Part shown: in pieces, positions 12,636-32,699 of the stretch
Position numbering within the stretch: position 1 is the first letter of the stretch
How the letters are laid out: the number at the start of each line of letters is the position of its first letter
NCBI GenBank assembly: GCA_017433125.1
Contig: JAFRHT010000121.1
Location: 1-32,844 of the forward strand
Direction: 5' to 3'
DNA from: Solobacterium sp.
Lineage (GTDB): Bacteria > Bacillota_I > Bacilli_A > Erysipelotrichales > Erysipelotrichaceae
DNA length: 32,844 nt
Program-made: the position numbers and the translations under genes
Notes under the pieces: generated by a model
Database searches by the model: none
What the model saw: the letters and a program-made list of their open reading frames with translations, nothing else
What the model was told of the DNA's origin: nothing

Positions 12636-12644
12636 AGCACCGCT
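12621..12644 (-). terminator. Terminator for CARF-nuclease gene
   Basis: Stem AGCGGTG / CACCGCT (12628-12634, 12638-12644), followed on the - strand by GTTTTTT. It overlaps the stop codon of the CARF gene and the 3' end of the small + strand gene. Confidence 0.75.
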
Positions 12645-13797
12645 ATTTGATGGCTGACAGGAAGAGGTTTTTCGCGTTCCTGGTTTTGAAGTCCTTGACT
12701 TCGATCAGGCCGATGCTCAGCCGGATAAACTTATTGTAAACCCGGTATCTGAGATCGGAGTCTTCCCGGATCCGGCTGGTTGTGACAATGACCGGATGCG
12801 CTTCAATGCCGCGCAGATGCCGGGCCAGATAACCGACCTCATTGAGATCCTGAGTGGATGGCTCCGTCATCTTGCAGGAGATGAAACAGGGTTCTGATTT
12901 AAAGACAGCGAATACATCGATTTCATTGTCGAGGGTGTCGTTGCTGTCGTTGCTGGTCCAGTCGATCTTATAGCCGAGGCGGACATCGCTGAAGACGCCC
13001 TTGGCCTTGATGTACGTATACAGTTCCAGCCACTCCCCATAGGTTGTCATGTATTCCTTGTACCGCGCTGACGGATAGGAATACTTGCGGTCATGTTCAT
13101 TCAGGAAATGGTAGCTGCGGAAGCGGTTGACCATTTTTTCAACATCGTATGACTTGTTGTTGTAGTCAAGCATTTTCGGAATGCTGAACCATTCACCGGG
13201 CTGGGTGGAGGCATATCTGGCCGCCAGATAATTGCACAGGGCATGCCATGTCTTCAGATGATCAAAGATATACTCGCTCATCTCGCAGATGATGTCATAT
13301 TCTTCCTCCAGGGGCAGGGAACGGGAATTGCCGACGTTCTTGGCTCCCAGCGCGATGGTGTATGTGTCGATATCGATATGCTTGATATCGGCCATCTTGG
13401 CATTGCCGTGCTGGACATCCCGGATGGTCATGGCCCGCCGGTCAATATAGATCGGGAAGACATGGTCATGTTCCAGGCCGGCGCTGTAGCCGGCAATGGT
13501 CATGATTTCCGTGGACTTGGAGAGATTCAGATAGATCATCGCGTCCCGGCGGATATCGATGACATATTCCAGTTTGGCCTTGATATCCTCAAGACTTGAG
13601 TCATCAATCTGCACAAAGGAAAACCTGACCGGGTTGTCACGCGGATAGAGGGAGCGGATCGCTTCCTCGAGGAATGACGGGGCGGTTGTATTCAGATCCC
13701 GGGGTGAAATCATCATGAAAATTTCTTCCGGCAGGAAGGTGTTGACTGGGATCAGTGTGCTGACAATATTGGATGCGAAAAAATCGATCAGTATCAT
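12643..13797 (-). CDS. Stand-alone CARF-nuclease, Card1/DUF1887-like
   Basis: A 384-residue protein whose architecture matches the DUF1887/Card1 family. An N-terminal Rossmann-like CARF domain (about 1-150) has ILIDFFASNIVSTLIPV and the ligand loop YLNLSKSTEIM (89-99, usually LNLTGGTKxM). A middle winged-helix-like region follows. The C-terminal restriction-endonuclease fold has GEWLEL (254-259), NEIDVFAV (291-298) with D294, and FISCK (305-309), where the usual ECK has become SCK. Card1 is a type III CRISPR accessory nuclease activated by cyclic oligoadenylate; no cas genes or repeats are present here. The ATG at 13797 gives the canonical N-terminus. It has no ribosome site and lies 7 bases after TATAAT, suggesting a leaderless message. 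Confidence 0.82.
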   Translation of the reverse strand: MILIDFFASNIVSTLIPVNTFLPEEIFMMISPRDLNTTAPSFLEEAIRSLYPRDNPVRFSFVQIDDSSLEDIKAKLEYVIDIRRDAMIYLNLSKSTEIMTIAGYSAGLEHDHVFPIYIDRRAMTIRDVQHGNAKMADIKHIDIDTYTIALGAKNVGNSRSLPLEEEYDIICEMSEYIFDHLKTWHALCNYLAARYASTQPGEWFSIPKMLDYNNKSYDVEKMVNRFRSYHFLNEHDRKYSYPSARYKEYMTTYGEWLELYTYIKAKGVFSDVRLGYKIDWTSNDSNDTLDNEIDVFAVFKSEPCFISCKMTEPSTQDLNEVGYLARHLRGIEAHPVIVTTSRIREDSDLRYRVYNKFIRLSIGLIEVKDFKTRNAKNLFLSAIK

Positions 13798-13803
13798 GAT
13801 TTC

Positions 13804-13809
13804 ATTATA
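13804..13809 (-). promoter_or_regulatory. -10 element of CARF gene, leaderless arrangement
   Basis: TATAAT on the - strand ends 6 bases before the ATG, placing the predicted TSS on the A of the start codon. The -35 is poor. It lies next to the riboswitch promoter on the opposite strand. Confidence 0.55.
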
Positions 13810-13832
13810 CAGGAATTTGTTAAGAACAGTTA

Positions 13833-13861
13833 TTGACAGTCTGATATCTACCATTCATAAT
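13833..13861 (+). promoter_or_regulatory. Strong promoter for lysine riboswitch transcript
   Basis: Consensus TTGACA (13833-13838), 17-base spacer, CATAAT (13856-13861, one mismatch). The predicted TSS near 13868 begins just before the aptamer P1 helix. Confidence 0.85.
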
Positions 13862-13872
13862 CGAATCAGGTC

Positions 13873-14037
13873 GACAACAGAGGCGCGTTGATTAAGAGTA
13901 ACTGTCATGAGGCGGCATGGCCCGGGAAAGACAGCGAAAGGATGAGACGCCGAAATCACCGGTCCCATGCCCGGACCGGGGAATTGGTACTTGGCCGAAC
14001 AGGTCCTGTACTCCCACGCTGTGGAGGAGCTATTGTC
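13873..14037 (+). ncRNA. Lysine riboswitch (L box) aptamer
   Basis: The conserved core is in order: AGAGGCGCG (13879-13887), AGTA, GCGAAAGG (13934-13941), GCCGAA (13949-13954) and CTGTGGAGGAGCT (14019-14031). Pairings: P1 GACAA/TTGTC (13873-13877, 14033-14037); P2 GCGTT/GACGC (13885-13889, 13946-13950); P2a CTGTC/GACAG (13902-13906, 13930-13934); P3 CCGGTCC/GGACCGG (13959-13965, 13973-13979); P5 CCAC/GTGG. The characteristic L2-L3 kissing contact is present as GGCATGG (13914-13920) with CCATGCC (13965-13971). Known lysine riboswitches lower expression when lysine binds. It leads into a terminator and a YtcJ-type amidohydrolase gene. Confidence 0.93.
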
Positions 14038-14053
14038 ACATCCGGAACGGGAA

Positions 14054-14082
14054 GGCGATGCTCTGTTGACATTGCCTTTTTT
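14054..14082 (+). terminator. Riboswitch expression-platform terminator
   Basis: Stem GGCGATG / CATTGCC (14054-14060, 14070-14076) followed by TTTTTT. TGACA (14067-14071) in the loop and 3' arm can instead pair with TGTCA (14034-14038) of P1, a plausible short antiterminator, which fits an OFF switch. Confidence 0.85.
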
Positions 14083-14105
14083 GTCAGCCGGAAGAGTGAG
14101 GACGA

Positions 14106-15722
14106 ATGATGAAAACAATTTACTTTAACGGAAAAATCTACACCGGTGAACTGCCGCTTGTCGAAGCATTTGCAGTGGAAGGCAATGAATTTGTTGCGGC
14201 CGGCACCAATGAGGAAATCTGCGCCCTGAAGGCTGAAGGTGATGAAACAGTTGATCTGGAAGGGGCGTTTGTATGCAGCGGTTTCAATGACAGCCACATG
14301 CATCTGACCGGCTTCGGCAACGCGCTCAAAACAGCCAACCTGGCAGTTCATACCGGCTCGCTGGAAGACCTGCTGGGTGAACTGAAGCGGTTTGCGGATG
14401 AACATCCGATCGCCGAGGGCGGCTGGCTGCAGGGCCGGGGCTGGAACCAGGACTATTTCTGTGACGCAGACCGGATGCCGAACCGGTATGATCTGGACAA
14501 GGTTTCCACAGACTATCCGATCGTCATTACAAGAGCCTGCGGGCACGCATCAGTGGTCAACTCCAAGGCTCTGGAAATTGCCGGTGTCACAGCTGACACA
14601 AAGGCTCCGGACGGGGGCCGCATCGGCATTGAAAACGGTGAGCCGGACGGCCGGTTCTTCGACAATGCCATGCCGATCATTTCGTCTCTGATCCCGGTTC
14701 CGACCAAGGAAGACATCAAGGAAATGATCCGCCTGGCCAGCAAGGCAGCAAACAGTTTTGGTGTGACCAGCGTTCAGTCCGATGACCTGGATACCTTCAA
14801 GGGTGTATCCTGGCGGGTCATCAAGGAAGCCTTCCAGGAAGTTGAAGCGGAAGGAGGCCTGACCGTACGTGTCTATGAACAGAGCCGGTTCCCGACCTTT
14901 GCCGGCTTCAAGGAATTCGTTGATGAAGGCAATGTGACCGGCGTCGGCACAGAAAACTTCAAGATCGGCCCGCTGAAGATGCTCGGTGACGGTGCCCTGG
15001 GGGCCAGAACCGCTTTCCTGAGCCGGCCGTACGCGGATGATCCGAATGCCACCGGCCTGGCGATCTACAGCGTGGAAGAAATGAATGCCATGGTTGAATA
15101 CGCCAATGACCACAACATGCACGTGGCCATCCACGCGATCGGCGATGCCTGCCTTGACCGGGTGCTGAATGCCGTTGAACTGGCACTGAAGAAGAACCCG
15201 CGTGAAGACCACCGTCATGGTGTTGTCCACTGCCAGATTTCCCGGCCGGAACAGCTGCAGCGGATCGCTGACCTGAAGATGCATGTCTATGCCCAGAGCA
15301 TCTTCCTGGATTATGATACAAAGATTGTTGAAGCCCGGGTCGGCAAGGAACTCGCTTCCACCAGCTATAGCTGGAAGACCCTGATGGATAAGGGCGTGTC
15401 CGTATCCAACGGTTCTGACTGCCCGGTTGAACTGCCGTTTGCCCTGGGCGGTATCCAGTGCGCGGTTACCCGGAAGTCCTTGCACGGCGGTGAAGTCTAC
15501 CTGCCGGAACAGGCCTTCACGGTGCAGGAAGCGATTGATAGCTTCACCATCCGTTCTGCCGAAGCCAGCTTCGAAGAGAACCGGAAAGGCCGGATCGCTG
15601 CCGGTATGCTCGCTGACTTTGTTGTCCTGAGTGAAAACCCGTTCGAAGTTTCGGCGGACACCATCAAGGATATCAAGATCCTCGGCACATACATGGACGG
15701 CCGGAAGGTTTACGCCGGCTGA
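14106..15722 (+). CDS. YtcJ-type metal-dependent amidohydrolase
   Basis: A 538-residue amidohydrolase-3 family protein, full length. Metal-site features are DSHMH (H64, H66), GDGALG (carrying the usual acidic segment), VAIHAIGD, VHCQIS and SNGSDCPVE with D438. Members hydrolyse C-N bonds of amides or formamides; the substrate is unknown. It has no signal peptide. GTGAGG precedes two adjacent ATGs (14106 and 14109). It is the only gene between the lysine riboswitch and a terminator, so its expression should fall when lysine is high. That suggests a role in supplying lysine or a precursor, perhaps by deacylating an N-acyl compound, which is inference. Confidence 0.92.
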   Translation: MMKTIYFNGKIYTGELPLVEAFAVEGNEFVAAGTNEEICALKAEGDETVDLEGAFVCSGFNDSHMHLTGFGNALKTANLAVHTGSLEDLLGELKRFADEHPIAEGGWLQGRGWNQDYFCDADRMPNRYDLDKVSTDYPIVITRACGHASVVNSKALEIAGVTADTKAPDGGRIGIENGEPDGRFFDNAMPIISSLIPVPTKEDIKEMIRLASKAANSFGVTSVQSDDLDTFKGVSWRVIKEAFQEVEAEGGLTVRVYEQSRFPTFAGFKEFVDEGNVTGVGTENFKIGPLKMLGDGALGARTAFLSRPYADDPNATGLAIYSVEEMNAMVEYANDHNMHVAIHAIGDACLDRVLNAVELALKKNPREDHRHGVVHCQISRPEQLQRIADLKMHVYAQSIFLDYDTKIVEARVGKELASTSYSWKTLMDKGVSVSNGSDCPVELPFALGGIQCAVTRKSLHGGEVYLPEQAFTVQEAIDSFTIRSAEASFEENRKGRIAAGMLADFVVLSENPFEVSADTIKDIKILGTYMDGRKVYAG

Positions 15723-15732
15723 AACCAGACAT

Positions 15733-15772
15733 AAAAAAACCGGTGTATGGGCGACCATATACCGGTTTTTTT
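15733..15772. terminator. Bidirectional terminator
   Basis: A 12-bp stem (15739-15750 with 15755-15766, loop GCGA, one G-T pair) has A7 before and T7 after. Serves the amidohydrolase and the convergent YbjN-like gene. Confidence 0.93.
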
Positions 15773-17811: not shown

Positions 17812-18249
17812 CTATTCCAGGGCATCCAGATGTACGGAATGCACCTGGTTCAGATCTTTCAGGACTTCGATCAGGGTATCGATTGTTCCATGCAGGTTGG
17901 TGATATCCAGGACCATCATGACTGAAGCGCGCAGGGCCACCGGGGTAGACTGGGAAATCGTGATGATGCTGGCGTTGGCCCGGCTGATGGATCCCAGCAC
18001 CGCGGACAGAGCCCCGGCTTCGTGGGCCAGCACCATGGAAAGGGAAGCCCGGCGCTGGTTATTGGTTTCTTCGGGCTGAAAGACATAATCCTTGTATTTG
18101 TAATATGTATTCCGGGAAATCCCGACCCTCTGGACTGCCTCGGTGATGGTCAGCACCTCACAGGACATGAGCAGGTGCCGGGCTTCGATGACCTTGTCGA
18201 GATAATCCGGCAGGATCTTTTTGTTTACAATCAGATACTTTTCCGCCAT
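17812..18249 (-). CDS. UPF0735 ACT-domain protein
   Basis: A 145-residue protein of the UPF0735/PheB-like family. The N-terminus has a helix-turn-helix-like segment (TITEAVQRVGISRNTYYKYKD) and the C-terminus an ACT domain (SMVLAHEAGALSAVLGSISR), which in general binds amino acids. It overlaps thrB by 19 bases and closes the thrC-thrB operon, so a regulatory or sensing role in threonine synthesis is plausible. No enzymatic motif is visible. Confidence 0.9.
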   Translation of the reverse strand: MAEKYLIVNKKILPDYLDKVIEARHLLMSCEVLTITEAVQRVGISRNTYYKYKDYVFQPEETNNQRRASLSMVLAHEAGALSAVLGSISRANASIITISQSTPVALRASVMMVLDITNLHGTIDTLIEVLKDLNQVHSVHLDALE

Positions 18250-19127
18250 ACGCCGTTTTCCTTTATTTCGATGCCGCCGCGGGCAATGTTGGTTTCAACG
18301 ATCTGCCAGCCGTCCGGCAGTTCCATGATCTGCCTGACCGCGTTCTGGGCCAGGGACTCATGGCTGATGAAGAAGCAGGTGGAGCCGCTGCCGCTGATCA
18401 GGAACGCGCCTTCCGTATTGTCCAGCACGATTTTCCGGACGGTGCTGTAGTTGGGGATCAGCTGGCTGCGGTAGGGTTCATGAAGCTGGTCAACGGCTGC
18501 TTCCTTAAGCAGTTCCAGACTGCCGGTGCGCAGGGCTTCCACCATCATGACCGCGTGGGCACCGTTGCCGGCGGCGATACTGAGGGGATAGGACTTCGGC
18601 AGGATAGCCCGGGCCTGTTCGGTCGGCACTTCGCTGTCCGGCACCAGGATGGTATAGCGGAAGCGGTCGGAGATATCAAGCCTGTGCACCAGAACAGTAT
18701 TGTCATCCCGCTTCAGGCAGGCAGTGGCGCCGCCCAGGATGCACGGGGCCGCATTATCCGGATGATGCTCGAGTTCGCTGGCCAGATTGACGCACTGTTC
18801 GGCATCCGGCTGAATGCCGTTGACCAGATTGGCCGCAATAATCCCGCCGGCATACATGGCCGCACTGGACCCCAACCCCCGGCAGATCGGCACATCGCAG
18901 GCAAAATCAACATGGATACCCGTGGTTTTTCCCAGGATGGCGGATTCCGTCATGAACGCCCGCAGGAACATGTTTTCATCATTGTCAAAACGGGGATCAA
19001 CGTTATACATTTCAAAGTCATCTGCCGGTTCGAAGATAAACCGGTTGTATATGGCCAGCGCCATGCCCAGACAGTCAAAGCCGGGGCCGAGATTGGCTGA
19101 GGTGGCAGGGACACGGATTTCAATCAT
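18231..19127 (-). CDS. thrB: Homoserine kinase
   Basis: GHMP-family kinase of 298 residues, normal length. It phosphorylates homoserine with ATP, giving O-phosphohomoserine for threonine synthase. Visible motifs: N-terminal VPATSANLGPGFDCLGMAL, the phosphate loop PICRGLGSSAAMYAGG and the C-terminal LISGSGSTCFF. It overlaps thrC by 8 bases and the ACT gene by 19, indicating tight coupling in one operon. Confidence 0.96.
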   Translation of the reverse strand: MIEIRVPATSANLGPGFDCLGMALAIYNRFIFEPADDFEMYNVDPRFDNDENMFLRAFMTESAILGKTTGIHVDFACDVPICRGLGSSAAMYAGGIIAANLVNGIQPDAEQCVNLASELEHHPDNAAPCILGGATACLKRDDNTVLVHRLDISDRFRYTILVPDSEVPTEQARAILPKSYPLSIAAGNGAHAVMMVEALRTGSLELLKEAAVDQLHEPYRSQLIPNYSTVRKIVLDNTEGAFLISGSGSTCFFISHESLAQNAVRQIMELPDGWQIVETNIARGGIEIKENGVWRKSI

Positions 19128-20601
19128 GGGACAGTTCCTCCATTCGTTTCATGATCACGGCTTTGCCTTCCGACCGGTCAATGACTTCCCGGAAACGGAC
19201 CGGCAGGGTTTCCAGTTCGGCCAGCCCCGTCGGGACCTTCAGACCGCTCAGGGCAGCCAGGTTCCGCATGGCTTCGAACTCATCTTCCGGCAGCGGCTGA
19301 TCCAGGCAGGCCAGCACACTGCGGGAGAACTTGAAGGGGGAGGCGGTGGACAGGACTACACAGGGGACATCACTGTGCAGTTTCCGGTATTCATGCATGG
19401 CATGCATGGCAACCGCGGTATGCGGGTCGATCAGCACCTGTTCCTGCCGGTACAGATTCGCGATTTCCCGGCGGCAGGCCTCTTCCGGGGCATAGTAACC
19501 GAGGAAGATCTCCTGCAGCGCGGTCAGCAGTTCGGCAGGGATGGTATAGGCGCCGGTATCCCACAGGGATTTCATGCAGGAGCGCACCATTGCGTCATTG
19601 CCGCCGGAAGCGAAGAACAGCAGCCGTTCCAGGTTGCTGGAAATCAGGATATCCATTGAAGGGGACATGGTCATGTGGAACGGACGGCGGGCATCATAGG
19701 TGCCGGTATGCAGGAAGTCGGTCAGCACATTGTTTTCATTCGAAGCACAGAGCAGATGCCGGATGGGCAGGCCGCTCCGTCTGGCCATATAACCGGCCAG
19801 GATATCCCCGAAGTTGCCGGTCGGAACAGCAAAGCTGACTTCCTCACCGGCATGAATGGCACCTGTTTTGACCAGGGCTGCATAGGCGGCATAGTAGTAG
19901 ACCATCTGCGGCAGCAGCCGGCCGATATTGATCGAATTGGCGCTGGAAATCGTCACATGTTTTCCGGCGGCGCGCACTTCCGGATCGGTGGTGCATTCCT
20001 TGACCATGCGCTGGCAGTCATCGAAATTGCCGCGGACCGCAATCACTGAAACATTATTGCCGCGGCTGGTCTGCATCTGCCGCTTCTGGACCGGCGAGAC
20101 ACCGTCTTCCGGGAAGAAGACGGTAATGGCTGTGTTCGGCACATCCGCAAACCCGGCCAGGGCTGCCTTGCCGGTATCCCCGCTGGTCGCGGTCAGGATG
20201 GCTACCGTGTCGTCCCGGCCTTCTTTCGCATAGGCTGTAGTGAGCATGTGCGGCATGATGGTCAGGGCCAGATCCTTGAAAGCGGCGGTCGGGCCATGCC
20301 AGAGCTCCAGCAGCCAGCTGTCACTGAGCCTGCGGAGCGGGGCAATGTCAGCGGTATCATATTTGTCATCATAGGCCAGCCGGATACACGCCTGCAGTTC
20401 CTCATCGGTGAAATCTTCGAGGAACGGACGCATGACGGCAAAGGCCAGATCCTGATAGGAAACGTTTTTATAATCCGGTTCCGGGATGTGCACATCCAGG
20501 TTATCAGGTACGAAAAGACCGCCGTCTTCTGCCAGGCCGCGGATCATTGCCTGACCGGCAGATATAGTGATATCTTTATTACGGGTACTGTAGAATTTCA
20601 T
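19120..20601 (-). CDS. thrC: Threonine synthase
   Basis: PLP-dependent enzyme, 493 residues, matching the longer E. coli/yeast-type threonine synthases. It converts O-phosphohomoserine to threonine. The PLP lysine is in WHGPTAAFKDLA. Other family stretches are LTATSGDTGKAALAGF, SSANSINIGRLLPQ and AVPTGNFGDILAGY. I chose the ATG at 20601, preceded by AGGAGGAG, which gives the usual start MKFYSTRN. First gene of the thrC-thrB-ACT operon, divergent from hom. Confidence 0.96.
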   Translation of the reverse strand: MKFYSTRNKDITISAGQAMIRGLAEDGGLFVPDNLDVHIPEPDYKNVSYQDLAFAVMRPFLEDFTDEELQACIRLAYDDKYDTADIAPLRRLSDSWLLELWHGPTAAFKDLALTIMPHMLTTAYAKEGRDDTVAILTATSGDTGKAALAGFADVPNTAITVFFPEDGVSPVQKRQMQTSRGNNVSVIAVRGNFDDCQRMVKECTTDPEVRAAGKHVTISSANSINIGRLLPQMVYYYAAYAALVKTGAIHAGEEVSFAVPTGNFGDILAGYMARRSGLPIRHLLCASNENNVLTDFLHTGTYDARRPFHMTMSPSMDILISSNLERLLFFASGGNDAMVRSCMKSLWDTGAYTIPAELLTALQEIFLGYYAPEEACRREIANLYRQEQVLIDPHTAVAMHAMHEYRKLHSDVPCVVLSTASPFKFSRSVLACLDQPLPEDEFEAMRNLAALSGLKVPTGLAELETLPVRFREVIDRSEGKAVIMKRMEELSHD

Positions 20602-20632
20602 TGTCACTCCTCCTGTAAAGGCCGATGTAACA

Positions 20633-20661
20633 ATGATACTATGTCTGCAGAGCGAAGACAA
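20633..20661 (-). promoter_or_regulatory. thrC operon promoter with palindrome at -35
   Basis: On the - strand TTGTCT (20656-20661), 17-base spacer, TATCAT (20633-20638). A perfect palindrome AAGACA-AC-TGTCTT (20655-20668) covers the -35. On the + strand an extended -10 TGATACTAT (20634-20642) could serve hom, so the two promoters overlap. Confidence 0.65.
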
Positions 20662-20701
20662 CTGTCTTTGATTAAGATACAGCAATGAAGGAGAAAAAAT
20701 C

Positions 20702-21841
20702 ATGAAGGTAGCATTACTGGGTTTCGGAACGGTCGGCAAGGGCGTTGCCGAGATCATCGATCAGGGCAAGGACAAGGATACTGCCGGGCTGGAGATTGTC
20801 CGGATTCTGAAGCGAACACCGGCCGGGGATCCCCGCATTACACTTGATTACCGGGATATCGAAGCGTGCGATGCCGAACTAGTGGCGGAGTGCATGGGCG
20901 GCCTGGAACCGGCGCATACCTATGTGCGCAGGGCACTGGAAGCGGGCCGGCATGTCGTGACAGCCAACAAGAAGATGCTGGCAGAACACTACACTGAACT
21001 GGCCGGCCTGGCGAAGGAAAAGGGTGTCCGGCTGCTGTTTGAGGCGACTGCCGGCGGCGGCATCCCCTGGATGGCGGCCCTGCGGCGGCTGCGGCGGATC
21101 GACGATGTGCAGTCATTCCGCGGCATCCTGAACGGCACGACCAACTACATCCTGTCGGCGATGACGGATGCCGGCCTGGACTTCGGGGAGATGCTGAAGA
21201 AAGCCCAGGAACTCGGGTATGCCGAAGCGGATCCGACAGATGACATCGACGGCTATGATGTCCGCTACAAAGCGGTGCTGTCGGCCATTGCGGCCTTTGA
21301 TGCCGCCGTCCTGCCGGAAACAGTGCCGGCCCTGGGCATCCGCCATATCAGCGCGGCCGATATCGCCTGGGGCAGGGAGCACGGCAGAATCGTCAAGCTG
21401 ATTGCGGCCGGTGAGAAGAACGACAGCCGGCTGTCCCTGTATGTCATGCCGCAGTTCCTGCCGGCTTCGGATGTACTTGCCCGCATCGGCAAGAATTTCA
21501 ACGGGGTGGAGGCTGTCAGCACAACCCTCGGCCCGAGCACTTACATCGGCCAGGGTGCCGGCAGACTGCCGACCGGCCATGCCATGGTGCAGGATATGCT
21601 CACCATTGCCAAGGGCGAAGAACTGACTGCCTGTGAAGCGGCTGCGGCAGAAGTGGATAATGCCAAAGTTGAAAAGAGATTCTATGTCCGGACTGCCCGG
21701 CCGGAAGTCTTTGCCGGCGTCAGGGCGGAAACGGCCGGAACAGATGCGTTTGTTACGGCGCGCCTGCCGCTGGATGACCTGCTGGCGCTGATCGGGAAGG
21801 CTGATGATCCGGAACTGTTCGCCGCAGTAGTCGCAGACTGA
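20702..21841 (+). CDS. hom: Homoserine dehydrogenase, short C-terminus
   Basis: NAD(P)-dependent reductase converting aspartate semialdehyde to homoserine, 379 residues. The N-terminal GFGTVGKGV is the dinucleotide motif. ILNGTTNYIL and GYAEADPTDDIDGYDVRYK form the catalytic region, the latter with the conserved acids and Lys. Gram-positive homologues usually have about 430 residues with a C-terminal ACT domain. Here only about 55 residues follow the catalytic part, so the regulatory domain looks shortened or lost. GAAGGAG stands before the ATG. Divergent from thrC. Confidence 0.95.
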   Translation: MKVALLGFGTVGKGVAEIIDQGKDKDTAGLEIVRILKRTPAGDPRITLDYRDIEACDAELVAECMGGLEPAHTYVRRALEAGRHVVTANKKMLAEHYTELAGLAKEKGVRLLFEATAGGGIPWMAALRRLRRIDDVQSFRGILNGTTNYILSAMTDAGLDFGEMLKKAQELGYAEADPTDDIDGYDVRYKAVLSAIAAFDAAVLPETVPALGIRHISAADIAWGREHGRIVKLIAAGEKNDSRLSLYVMPQFLPASDVLARIGKNFNGVEAVSTTLGPSTYIGQGAGRLPTGHAMVQDMLTIAKGEELTACEAAAAEVDNAKVEKRFYVRTARPEVFAGVRAETAGTDAFVTARLPLDDLLALIGKADDPELFAAVVAD

Positions 21842-30764: not shown

Positions 30765-30841
<77 letters not shown>

Positions 30842-30866
30842 TCTTCTTCATCGGATTGATATACAC

Positions 30867-30942
30867 GGGGTTTTAGCTCAGCTGGGAGAGCACCTGCTTT
30901 GCAAGCAGGGGGTCAGGAGTTCGATCCTCCTAAGCTCCACCA
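30867..30942 (+). tRNA. tRNA-Ala (TGC)
   Basis: A 76-base gene with encoded CCA. Anticodon loop TTTGCAA has TGC. The acceptor stem GGGGTTT/AAGCTCC includes two G-T pairs. The TTCGATC loop is normal. Confidence 0.98.
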
Positions 30943-31970: not shown

Positions 31971-32699
31971 ATGAACAGGGAAATCGAGGCGCTGCAGAAG
32001 ATCATAGACCGTTCCCTGCGTCTTGTTTTCTTCGGCGGGGCCGGGGTATCTACGGCCAGCGGGATTCCTGATTTCCGCTCGGCTGACGGGCTTTATACGA
32101 AAGAATACGGCGGGCTGTCACCGGAGGAGATTCTCAGCAATATCTACTATCTGGTGCATATGAAGGAGTTCTACGACTTCTACCGGAAATACATGGTCTA
32201 TCCGGAAGCGCAGCCCAACGCCGCCCACCGCAAGTTATATGAACTGGAAAAGGCAGATAAACTGCGGGGCATCGTGACCCAGAACATCGACGGCCTGCAC
32301 CGCATGGCCGGCAACCGTCGGGTGTACGAGATCCACGGCAGTGTGCACGAAAACTACTGTCTGGAATGTGATACATCCTATCCGCTGGAAACAATCATGA
32401 ATTCCACCGGGATTCCGCGGTGTGAAAAATGCGGCGGGATCATCAAACCTTATGTCGTGCTGTATGGGGAAGCCCCGGACAGATATACGATGATCGGGGC
32501 CAGGCGGGAGATATCCAACGCCGATACACTGATCGTAGCCGGCACCAGTCTTTCCGTGGAACCGGCCGCATCCTTCCTCGATGACTTCCATGGCCGCAGC
32601 CTGGTGGTGATCAACCGGGAACCAACCCCGGCGGATGAGCGGGCGGACCTGATCATCCGGGATGATGTGGCGGCAGTCATGGCACAAATAAAAGTCTGA
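31971..32699 (+). CDS. NAD-dependent protein deacylase, Sir2 family
   Basis: A 242-residue sirtuin of normal bacterial length. The NAD-binding GAGVSTASGIPDFRSADG and TQNIDGLHRMAG, the catalytic His in EIHGSVHENYC, and a zinc-binding CLEC...CEKC pair are intact. It removes acyl groups from lysines, producing nicotinamide and O-acyl-ADP-ribose. GGGAGGAAAG precedes the ATG. Probably co-transcribed with the CorA gene. The IS3-type element begins 11 bases after its stop. Confidence 0.96.
   Translation: MNREIEALQKIIDRSLRLVFFGGAGVSTASGIPDFRSADGLYTKEYGGLSPEEILSNIYYLVHMKEFYDFYRKYMVYPEAQPNAAHRKLYELEKADKLRGIVTQNIDGLHRMAGNRRVYEIHGSVHENYCLECDTSYPLETIMNSTGIPRCEKCGGIIKPYVVLYGEAPDRYTMIGARREISNADTLIVAGTSLSVEPAASFLDDFHGRSLVVINREPTPADERADLIIRDDVAAVMAQIKV

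What the first reader, a model, noticed from the sequence alone, without database searches (positions are those of the whole stretch)
13833..14105. Lysine riboswitch controls a YtcJ-type amidohydrolase
A near-consensus promoter leads straight into an L-box aptamer with all core motifs and the L2-L3 kissing contact, then a terminator. Lysine riboswitches normally sit before lysC, lysA, dap or lysine transporter genes. Here the only downstream gene is an amidohydrolase of unknown substrate. An OFF switch implies the enzyme is wanted when lysine is scarce, for example to free lysine or a precursor from an N-acyl or peptide form.
Basis: partly seen in the sequence, partly recalled or inferred. Interest (0 to 1): 0.78.

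Follow-up and report, generated by a model that had tools for sequence, protein, structure and literature searches.

The report
Lysine riboswitch on a lysine-scavenging hydrolase
A bacterium that seems to have lost the ability to make lysine uses an ordinary lysine-sensing RNA switch to turn on a metal-dependent hydrolase when lysine runs short, most likely to cut lysine out of a modified form; several related species share the arrangement, which I did not find described.

Summary
Window 13870-14040 is a lysine riboswitch (RF00168, 73.1 bits, E 1.8e-17). It has a promoter 11/12 to consensus, all core motifs, an L2-L3 kissing contact that covaries among relatives, and a terminator/antiterminator that fits an OFF switch. 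The only gene behind it is a cytoplasmic-looking YtcJ-type amidohydrolase (PF07969). The pairing is not a one-off: in 10 of 70 genomes of this genus, and one of a sister genus, a lysine riboswitch precedes this enzyme, directly (7) or through an AGCS amino-acid symporter (4). The genome's second lysine riboswitch precedes a YfcC-like carrier and M20 amidohydrolases. All 12 genus genomes with riboswitch-linked hydrolases lack a lysA+dapA pair; 30 of 58 others have both. Best reading: a lysine-salvage regulon in lysine auxotrophs, in which the enzyme frees lysine from an imported lysine amide. N-epsilon-acyl-lysine is my leading substrate: characterised epsilon-lysine acylases are distant YtcJ-like relatives, but the window enzyme is not their ortholog. 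Substrate and ligand response are untested. Lysine riboswitches over YfcC plus an M20D amidohydrolase are already reported (C. difficile); I found no report for YtcJ or AGCS genes. New variant of a known kind.

The parts
13833..13861 (+). sigma-70-type promoter, TTGACA-17-CATAAT
   Evidence: 11 of 12 consensus matches; a similar element stands before the aptamer in relatives
13870..14040 (+). lysine riboswitch aptamer (RF00168)
   Evidence: 73.1 bits, E 1.8e-17; all 27 columns conserved at 95% or more match
13873..13880 (+). P1 5' strand GACAACAG
   Evidence: pairs with 14030-14037 (7 of 8 standard pairs)
13914..13919 (+). L2 kissing loop GGCAUG
   Evidence: perfect complement of L3; covaries in relatives, e.g. 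GGUACA/UGUACC in G026 (sequences)
13966..13971 (+). L3 kissing loop CAUGCC
   Evidence: as above
14026..14064 (+). predicted antiterminator: P1 3' strand (14026-14037) paired with the terminator 5' arm (14054-14064)
   Evidence: ViennaRNA fold; mutually exclusive with P1 and with the terminator
14050..14082 (+). intrinsic terminator hairpin with T6 run
   Evidence: -14.9 kcal/mol folded alone; hairpins at the like place in relatives
14096..14102 (+). likely ribosome-binding site GTGAGGA
   Evidence: sequence, (position and letters only)
14106..15722 (+). YtcJ-type metal-dependent amidohydrolase (PF07969), 538 aa, no evident signal peptide
   Evidence: 347 bits; metal ligands H64, H66, K291, H343, H375, D438 and H147
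15733..15771 (.). inverted repeat with T runs on both sides after the gene, terminator-like in both directions
   Evidence: sequence

Best explanation
This is a transcription-terminating lysine riboswitch (OFF switch) that governs a monocistronic, cytoplasmic zinc-type amidohydrolase used for lysine salvage. With lysine bound, P1 holds the strand that would form the antiterminator, the terminator folds and transcription stops. When lysine is scarce, the antiterminator forms and the enzyme is made. The bacterium appears to be a lysine auxotroph, so the enzyme most likely hydrolyses an imported lysine amide to free lysine. N-epsilon-acyl-lysine is the leading candidate substrate (about 0.4). Shown by sequence: the RNA family, the platform layout, the conservation of the pairing, the gene family and its metal site, and the absence of lysA, dapA and dapB matches over cut-off. 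Inferred: that the RNA binds lysine, the direction of control, auxotrophy as a phenotype, and the substrate.
For: Aptamer. Platform. Recurrence: riboswitch to YtcJ enzyme directly in G000, G006, G019, G026, G029, G302, G305; riboswitch to AGCS symporter to YtcJ enzyme in G013, G024, G034 and in G202 of a sister genus. The direct ones form one supported clade; the AGCS ones fall elsewhere in the tree. Co-regulated salvage: riboswitch to YfcC-like carrier in six genus genomes including this one, with M20 amidohydrolase homologs read behind it in five of them, and riboswitch to an OppA-like peptide-binding protein in G301. Auxotrophy: no lysA, dapA or dapB over cut-off in G000; the lysA-like gene of G000 scores higher against TIGR03099 than against lysA. 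None of 12 genomes with riboswitch-linked hydrolases has both lysA and dapA, against 30 of 58 others (Fisher p 0.0007; 0.003 among genomes at least 90% complete). Enzyme chemistry: SgELA, a characterised epsilon-lysine acylase, aligns over most of the protein (28% identity) and shares the five metal ligands and an active-site histidine (PMC10699109).
Against: No experimental data. The enzyme is only a distant relative of epsilon-lysine acylases, which lack the carboxylated lysine that this enzyme has (K291). Nine genus genomes have the enzyme at 55% identity or more without a linked riboswitch, so lysine control is not its universal partner. The AGCS carrier is absent from this genome. G006 has a good lysA match, though no dapA or dapB over cut-off and 7% estimated contamination. 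Fisher's test ignores relatedness. The alpha-aminoadipate route, dapF and dapL were not searched.
Confidence: 0.62

Rival explanations
1. The enzyme is a dipeptidase or carboxypeptidase that frees lysine from Xaa-Lys or Lys-Xaa peptides rather than from acyl-lysines. The regulatory logic is the same.
For: Amidohydrolase-superfamily prolidases and carboxypeptidases exist (Sgx9260b/c are compared with SgELA in PMC10699109). A lysine riboswitch stands before an OppA-like peptide-binding protein in G301.
Against: The linked carrier in four genomes is AGCS, an amino-acid symporter family, not a peptide carrier. PDB prolidase hits are weak (2qs8, E 7e-5), whereas the full-length hits are the uncharacterised 3igh and 3icj.
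Confidence: 0.22
2. The enzyme frees lysine from an N-alpha-conjugate, such as lysine-conjugated bile acids or other microbially made lysine amides.
For: Metal-dependent bile salt hydrolases belong to PF07969 (preprint PMC13081902).
Against: The described metalloBSHs carry an extra C-terminal domain; this protein is 538 aa and its Pfam match runs to residue 536. Habitat is not known from the tools. No direct link found.
Confidence: 0.1
3. The riboswitch was captured by chance and the enzyme has nothing to do with lysine.
For: Nine genus genomes carry the ortholog without a linked riboswitch; the enzyme family is broad.
Against: The pairing is kept in several lineages, at 50 to 98% protein identity and across two genera, with compensatory change in the kissing loops, and it occurs in genomes without a lysA+dapA pair.
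Confidence: 0.1

Closest known systems
Lysine riboswitch (L-box, RF00168) of lysC/lysA/dap operons and lysine transporters
   Same: Aptamer, core motifs, kissing loops, terminator-type platform
   Different: The target is a YtcJ-type amidohydrolase, alone or with an AGCS symporter
C. difficile CD3100-3099: lysine riboswitch, yfcC, M20D amidohydrolase (PMC11477304)
   Same: A lysine riboswitch over a hydrolase; the window genome's second lysine riboswitch (C101) has the same layout
   Different: M20D peptidase-fold hydrolase rather than amidohydrolase-superfamily PF07969; C. difficile also has lysine biosynthesis operons under lysine riboswitches
Epsilon-lysine acylase, EC 3.5.1.17 (Streptomyces SmELA, SgELA, ScELA)
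   Same: YtcJ-like amidohydrolase; same five metal ligands and an active-site histidine; SgELA releases lysine from N-epsilon-acetyl-lysine
   Different: 28% identity, not an ortholog (very long branch); ELAs lack the carboxylated lysine that this enzyme has
Thermotogales lysine operons ending in an 'amidohydrolase' (PMC5584792)
   Same: Hydrolase gene in a lysine-riboswitch operon
   Different: Sits within dap/lys biosynthesis operons (by my own knowledge probably the N-acetyl-diaminopimelate deacetylase step)

Membership tests
Lysine riboswitch RF00168 | covariance-model score over the gathering threshold | tested here: met
   73.1 bits against 30
Lysine riboswitch RF00168 | conserved core residues | tested here: met
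   no deviation in 27 columns conserved at 95% or more among 55 related aptamers
Lysine riboswitch RF00168 | L2-L3 kissing interaction | tested here: met
   6-base perfect complement, with covariation read by eye from the alignment
Lysine riboswitch RF00168 | terminator/antiterminator platform coupled to P1 | tested here: met
   predicted folds; hairpins at the like place in relatives
Lysine riboswitch RF00168 | binds L-lysine and lowers expression | not testable with these tools
   needs in-line probing or a reporter
YtcJ-like amidohydrolase (PF07969) | full-length profile match and metal site | tested here: met
   347 bits over 47-536; H64, H66, H343, H375, D438 invariant and K291 nearly so in 25 homologs
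Epsilon-lysine acylase (EC 3.5.1.17) | five conserved metal ligands | tested here: met
   aligned with SgELA taken from S. griseus by the published primer
Epsilon-lysine acylase (EC 3.5.1.17) | oxyanion-hole histidine (H177 of SgELA in the paper's numbering) | tested here: inconclusive
   H147 of the window enzyme aligns with a histidine of SgELA (DVHSAVV) that is not residue 177 of the fetched sequence, so which histidine is meant was not settled
Epsilon-lysine acylase (EC 3.5.1.17) | no carboxylated lysine (PMC11511702) | tested here: not met
   K291 is present in the window enzyme
Epsilon-lysine acylase (EC 3.5.1.17) | groups with the known ELAs (about 76-94% mutual identity) | tested here: not met
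   28% identity; SgELA lies on a very long branch
Epsilon-lysine acylase (EC 3.5.1.17) | hydrolyses N-epsilon-acyl-L-lysine | not testable with these tools
   needs an enzyme assay
Lysine auxotroph | lacks lysA, dapA and dapB | tested here: met
   no match over curated cut-off in G000, 96.8% complete
Lysine auxotroph | lacks other lysine routes (alpha-aminoadipate) | not tested
   not searched

The most novel reading that the evidence does not exclude
In this genus a dedicated salvage route for N-epsilon-acyl-lysine, with uptake by an AGCS symporter in some species and deacylation by a YtcJ-family enzyme, has replaced lysine biosynthesis under the same riboswitch. A parallel carrier-plus-M20 route would handle N-alpha-acyl-lysine.
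Probability: 0.33. Interest if true: 0.66.

Novelty: new variant of a known kind. Interest (0 to 1): 0.52.

Why it matters
The riboswitch gives a ligand-based handle on the function of a large, mostly uncharacterised amidohydrolase family: it predicts a lysine-yielding substrate that can be assayed directly. It also points to a way for lysine auxotrophs to use modified lysine, and it would extend the lysine-riboswitch regulon from synthesis and transport to salvage hydrolases of a second fold.

Tried and rejected
(1) Epsilon-lysine acylase ortholog: rejected as membership (K291 present, 28% identity, very long branch), kept as functional analogy. (2) Acyl-diaminopimelate hydrolase: disfavoured, as G000 has no lysA match over cut-off to use the product. 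(3) The lysA-like and dapA-like genes of G000: both below the curated cut-offs; the first scores higher against TIGR03099. (4) Riboswitch next to homologs in other families of the class: none in 20 fetched loci, but those loci hold only 1.5 kb upstream; G202, among them, turned positive once more DNA was fetched, so this negative is weak. (5) Non-riboswitch orthologs in G301, G326, G312, G005, G003, G015: no lysine riboswitch near them at E 0.01. (6) Structure prediction was not run: the fold is clear from 3igh/3icj and would not settle the substrate.

Full report
Observation. A scan of the whole window against Rfam gives three matches: the lysine riboswitch at 13870-14040 (73.1 bits, E 1.8e-17, model 1-182 complete) and two tRNAs. 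A promoter of 11/12 matches lies at 13833-13861. Against 55 related aptamers the window agrees in all 27 columns conserved at 95% or more. L2 GGCAUG and L3 CAUGCC are exact complements. In relatives the two loops change together (G026 GGUACA/UGUACC; G013 UGUGC/GCACA; G024 UGUCA/UGACA; read by eye).

Expression platform. The 3' strand of P1 (GGAGC-U-AUUGUC, 14026-14037) can pair either with the 5' strand of P1 or with GGCGAUGCUCU (14054-14064), which is the 5' arm of a terminator hairpin with a T6 run. The predicted order of events is: lysine bound, P1 kept, terminator formed, gene off; no lysine, antiterminator formed, gene on. A T-run-backed hairpin stands behind the aptamer in all the relatives examined except G013, where the hairpin sequence is present (GGGCAGTGTT...AACACTGCCC) but the T run is weak. 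The direction of control is inferred from structure prediction, not measured.

The gene. The only gene behind the switch is 14106-15722, a 538-aa PF07969 protein, followed by an inverted repeat with T runs on both sides. Closest solved structures are 3igh and 3icj, both uncharacterised hydrolases. H64, H66, H343, H375, D438 and H147 are invariant in 25 homologs; K291 is present in all but SgELA. The sequence starts MMKTIYFNGKIYTG with no evident signal peptide, so the enzyme is presumably cytoplasmic.

Recurrence. In 70 genomes of the genus, a lysine riboswitch precedes this enzyme directly in seven (G000, G006, G019, G026, G029, G302, G305) and through an AGCS symporter gene in three (G013, G024, G034). 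G202, of another genus in the family, has riboswitch, AGCS, YtcJ. In a protein tree the seven direct cases form one clade (support 100/99); G024 and G034 group with G202, and G013 groups with G301 (support 90/93), whose copy has no linked riboswitch. Nine genus genomes carry an ortholog (55% identity or more) without a linked riboswitch, and by coordinates none of the more distant paralogs (47% or less) sits next to one.

The rest of the regulon. Lysine riboswitches in this genus otherwise precede lysA-dapA-dapB operons, a lysine/arginine-type ABC transporter, a NhaC-type carrier, an OppA-like peptide-binding protein (G301), or a YfcC-like carrier. The YfcC arrangement is in six genomes, including the window's own genome (contig C101); M20 amidohydrolase homologs follow in five, and in G302 the fetched stretch ends before one could be seen. 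The same arrangement is described for C. difficile (PMC11477304). So two different hydrolase families sit under lysine riboswitches in this genome.

Auxotrophy. G000 has no match over the curated cut-off for lysA, dapA or dapB. Its lysA-like gene scores higher against TIGR03099 than against lysA. Across the genus, 0 of 12 genomes with riboswitch-linked hydrolases have both lysA and dapA, against 30 of 58 others (Fisher p 0.0007; 0.003 at 90% completeness or more). The test ignores relatedness. G006 has a lysA match and G030 a dapA match over cut-off, but neither has both. The threonine branch seems kept: thrC and hom lie in the window at 19120-21841, with a GHMP kinase (likely thrB) at 18231-19127.

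Substrate. A literature search showed that Streptomyces epsilon-lysine acylases are YtcJ-like amidohydrolases and that SgELA cleaves N-epsilon-acetyl-lysine only among the substrates tested (PMC10699109). I fetched SgELA from S. griseus through its published primer and aligned it: 28% identity, same five metal ligands, a shared histidine at the place of H147, but no counterpart of K291, as reported for ELAs (PMC11511702). The window enzyme is therefore not an ELA by descent, but its superfamily can do this chemistry. AGCS carriers are amino-acid symporters; as a further inference, a blocked epsilon-amine would make lysine resemble a neutral amino acid. This favours N-epsilon-acyl-lysine over N-alpha-acyl-lysine, weakly.

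Verdict. What I add is the recurrence, the co-regulated carriers and hydrolases, the apparent loss of lysine biosynthesis, and the epsilon-lysine-acylase analogy. My literature searches (open-access papers only) found no report of a lysine riboswitch over a YtcJ-type or AGCS gene; for I read titles and abstracts only.

Noticed in passing
window 12643-13854 (-): A CARF-PDDEXK nuclease-like gene (Card1_endonuc PF09002, 33 bits; PADLOC CARF4 models up to 161 bits) is divergent from the riboswitch. The direct-repeat listing for the window showed nothing like a CRISPR array.
   Followed up: partly
window 18231-21841: Homoserine dehydrogenase, threonine synthase and a GHMP kinase (likely thrB) lie together: the threonine branch of the aspartate pathway is kept while the lysine branch appears lost.
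   Followed up: partly
window 30765-30939: Two tRNA genes stand close together (anticodons read as GAT for Ile and TGC for Ala from the alignments), a pair typical of ribosomal RNA operon spacers, yet Rfam finds no rRNA in this contig.
   Followed up: no
L230 5221-5427: A T-box-like leader (85.7 bits, under its gathering score of 93) stands before a 357-aa ORF that looks like a tryptophanyl-tRNA synthetase by its first residues (ORF; not searched).
   Followed up: no
L074 1671-1842 (G034:C71): A third lysine riboswitch in G034 stands before a short ORF with no recognised family; possibly a contig-end or pseudogene case.
   Followed up: no
L214 (G298:C1:1371193-1371361): A lysine riboswitch in G298 has no recognised gene in the 4 kb behind it, while G298 has neither lysA nor dapA over cut-off.
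   Followed up: no
L121-L137, several genomes: A paralogous YtcJ family (about 38-47% identity to the window enzyme) often sits beside an HflX GTPase and a GNAT acetyltransferase in this genus, without riboswitches.
   Followed up: partly
window 31971-32699 (+): A Sir2-family deacylase is encoded in the same contig; any link to lysine acylation is only a thought.
   Followed up: no
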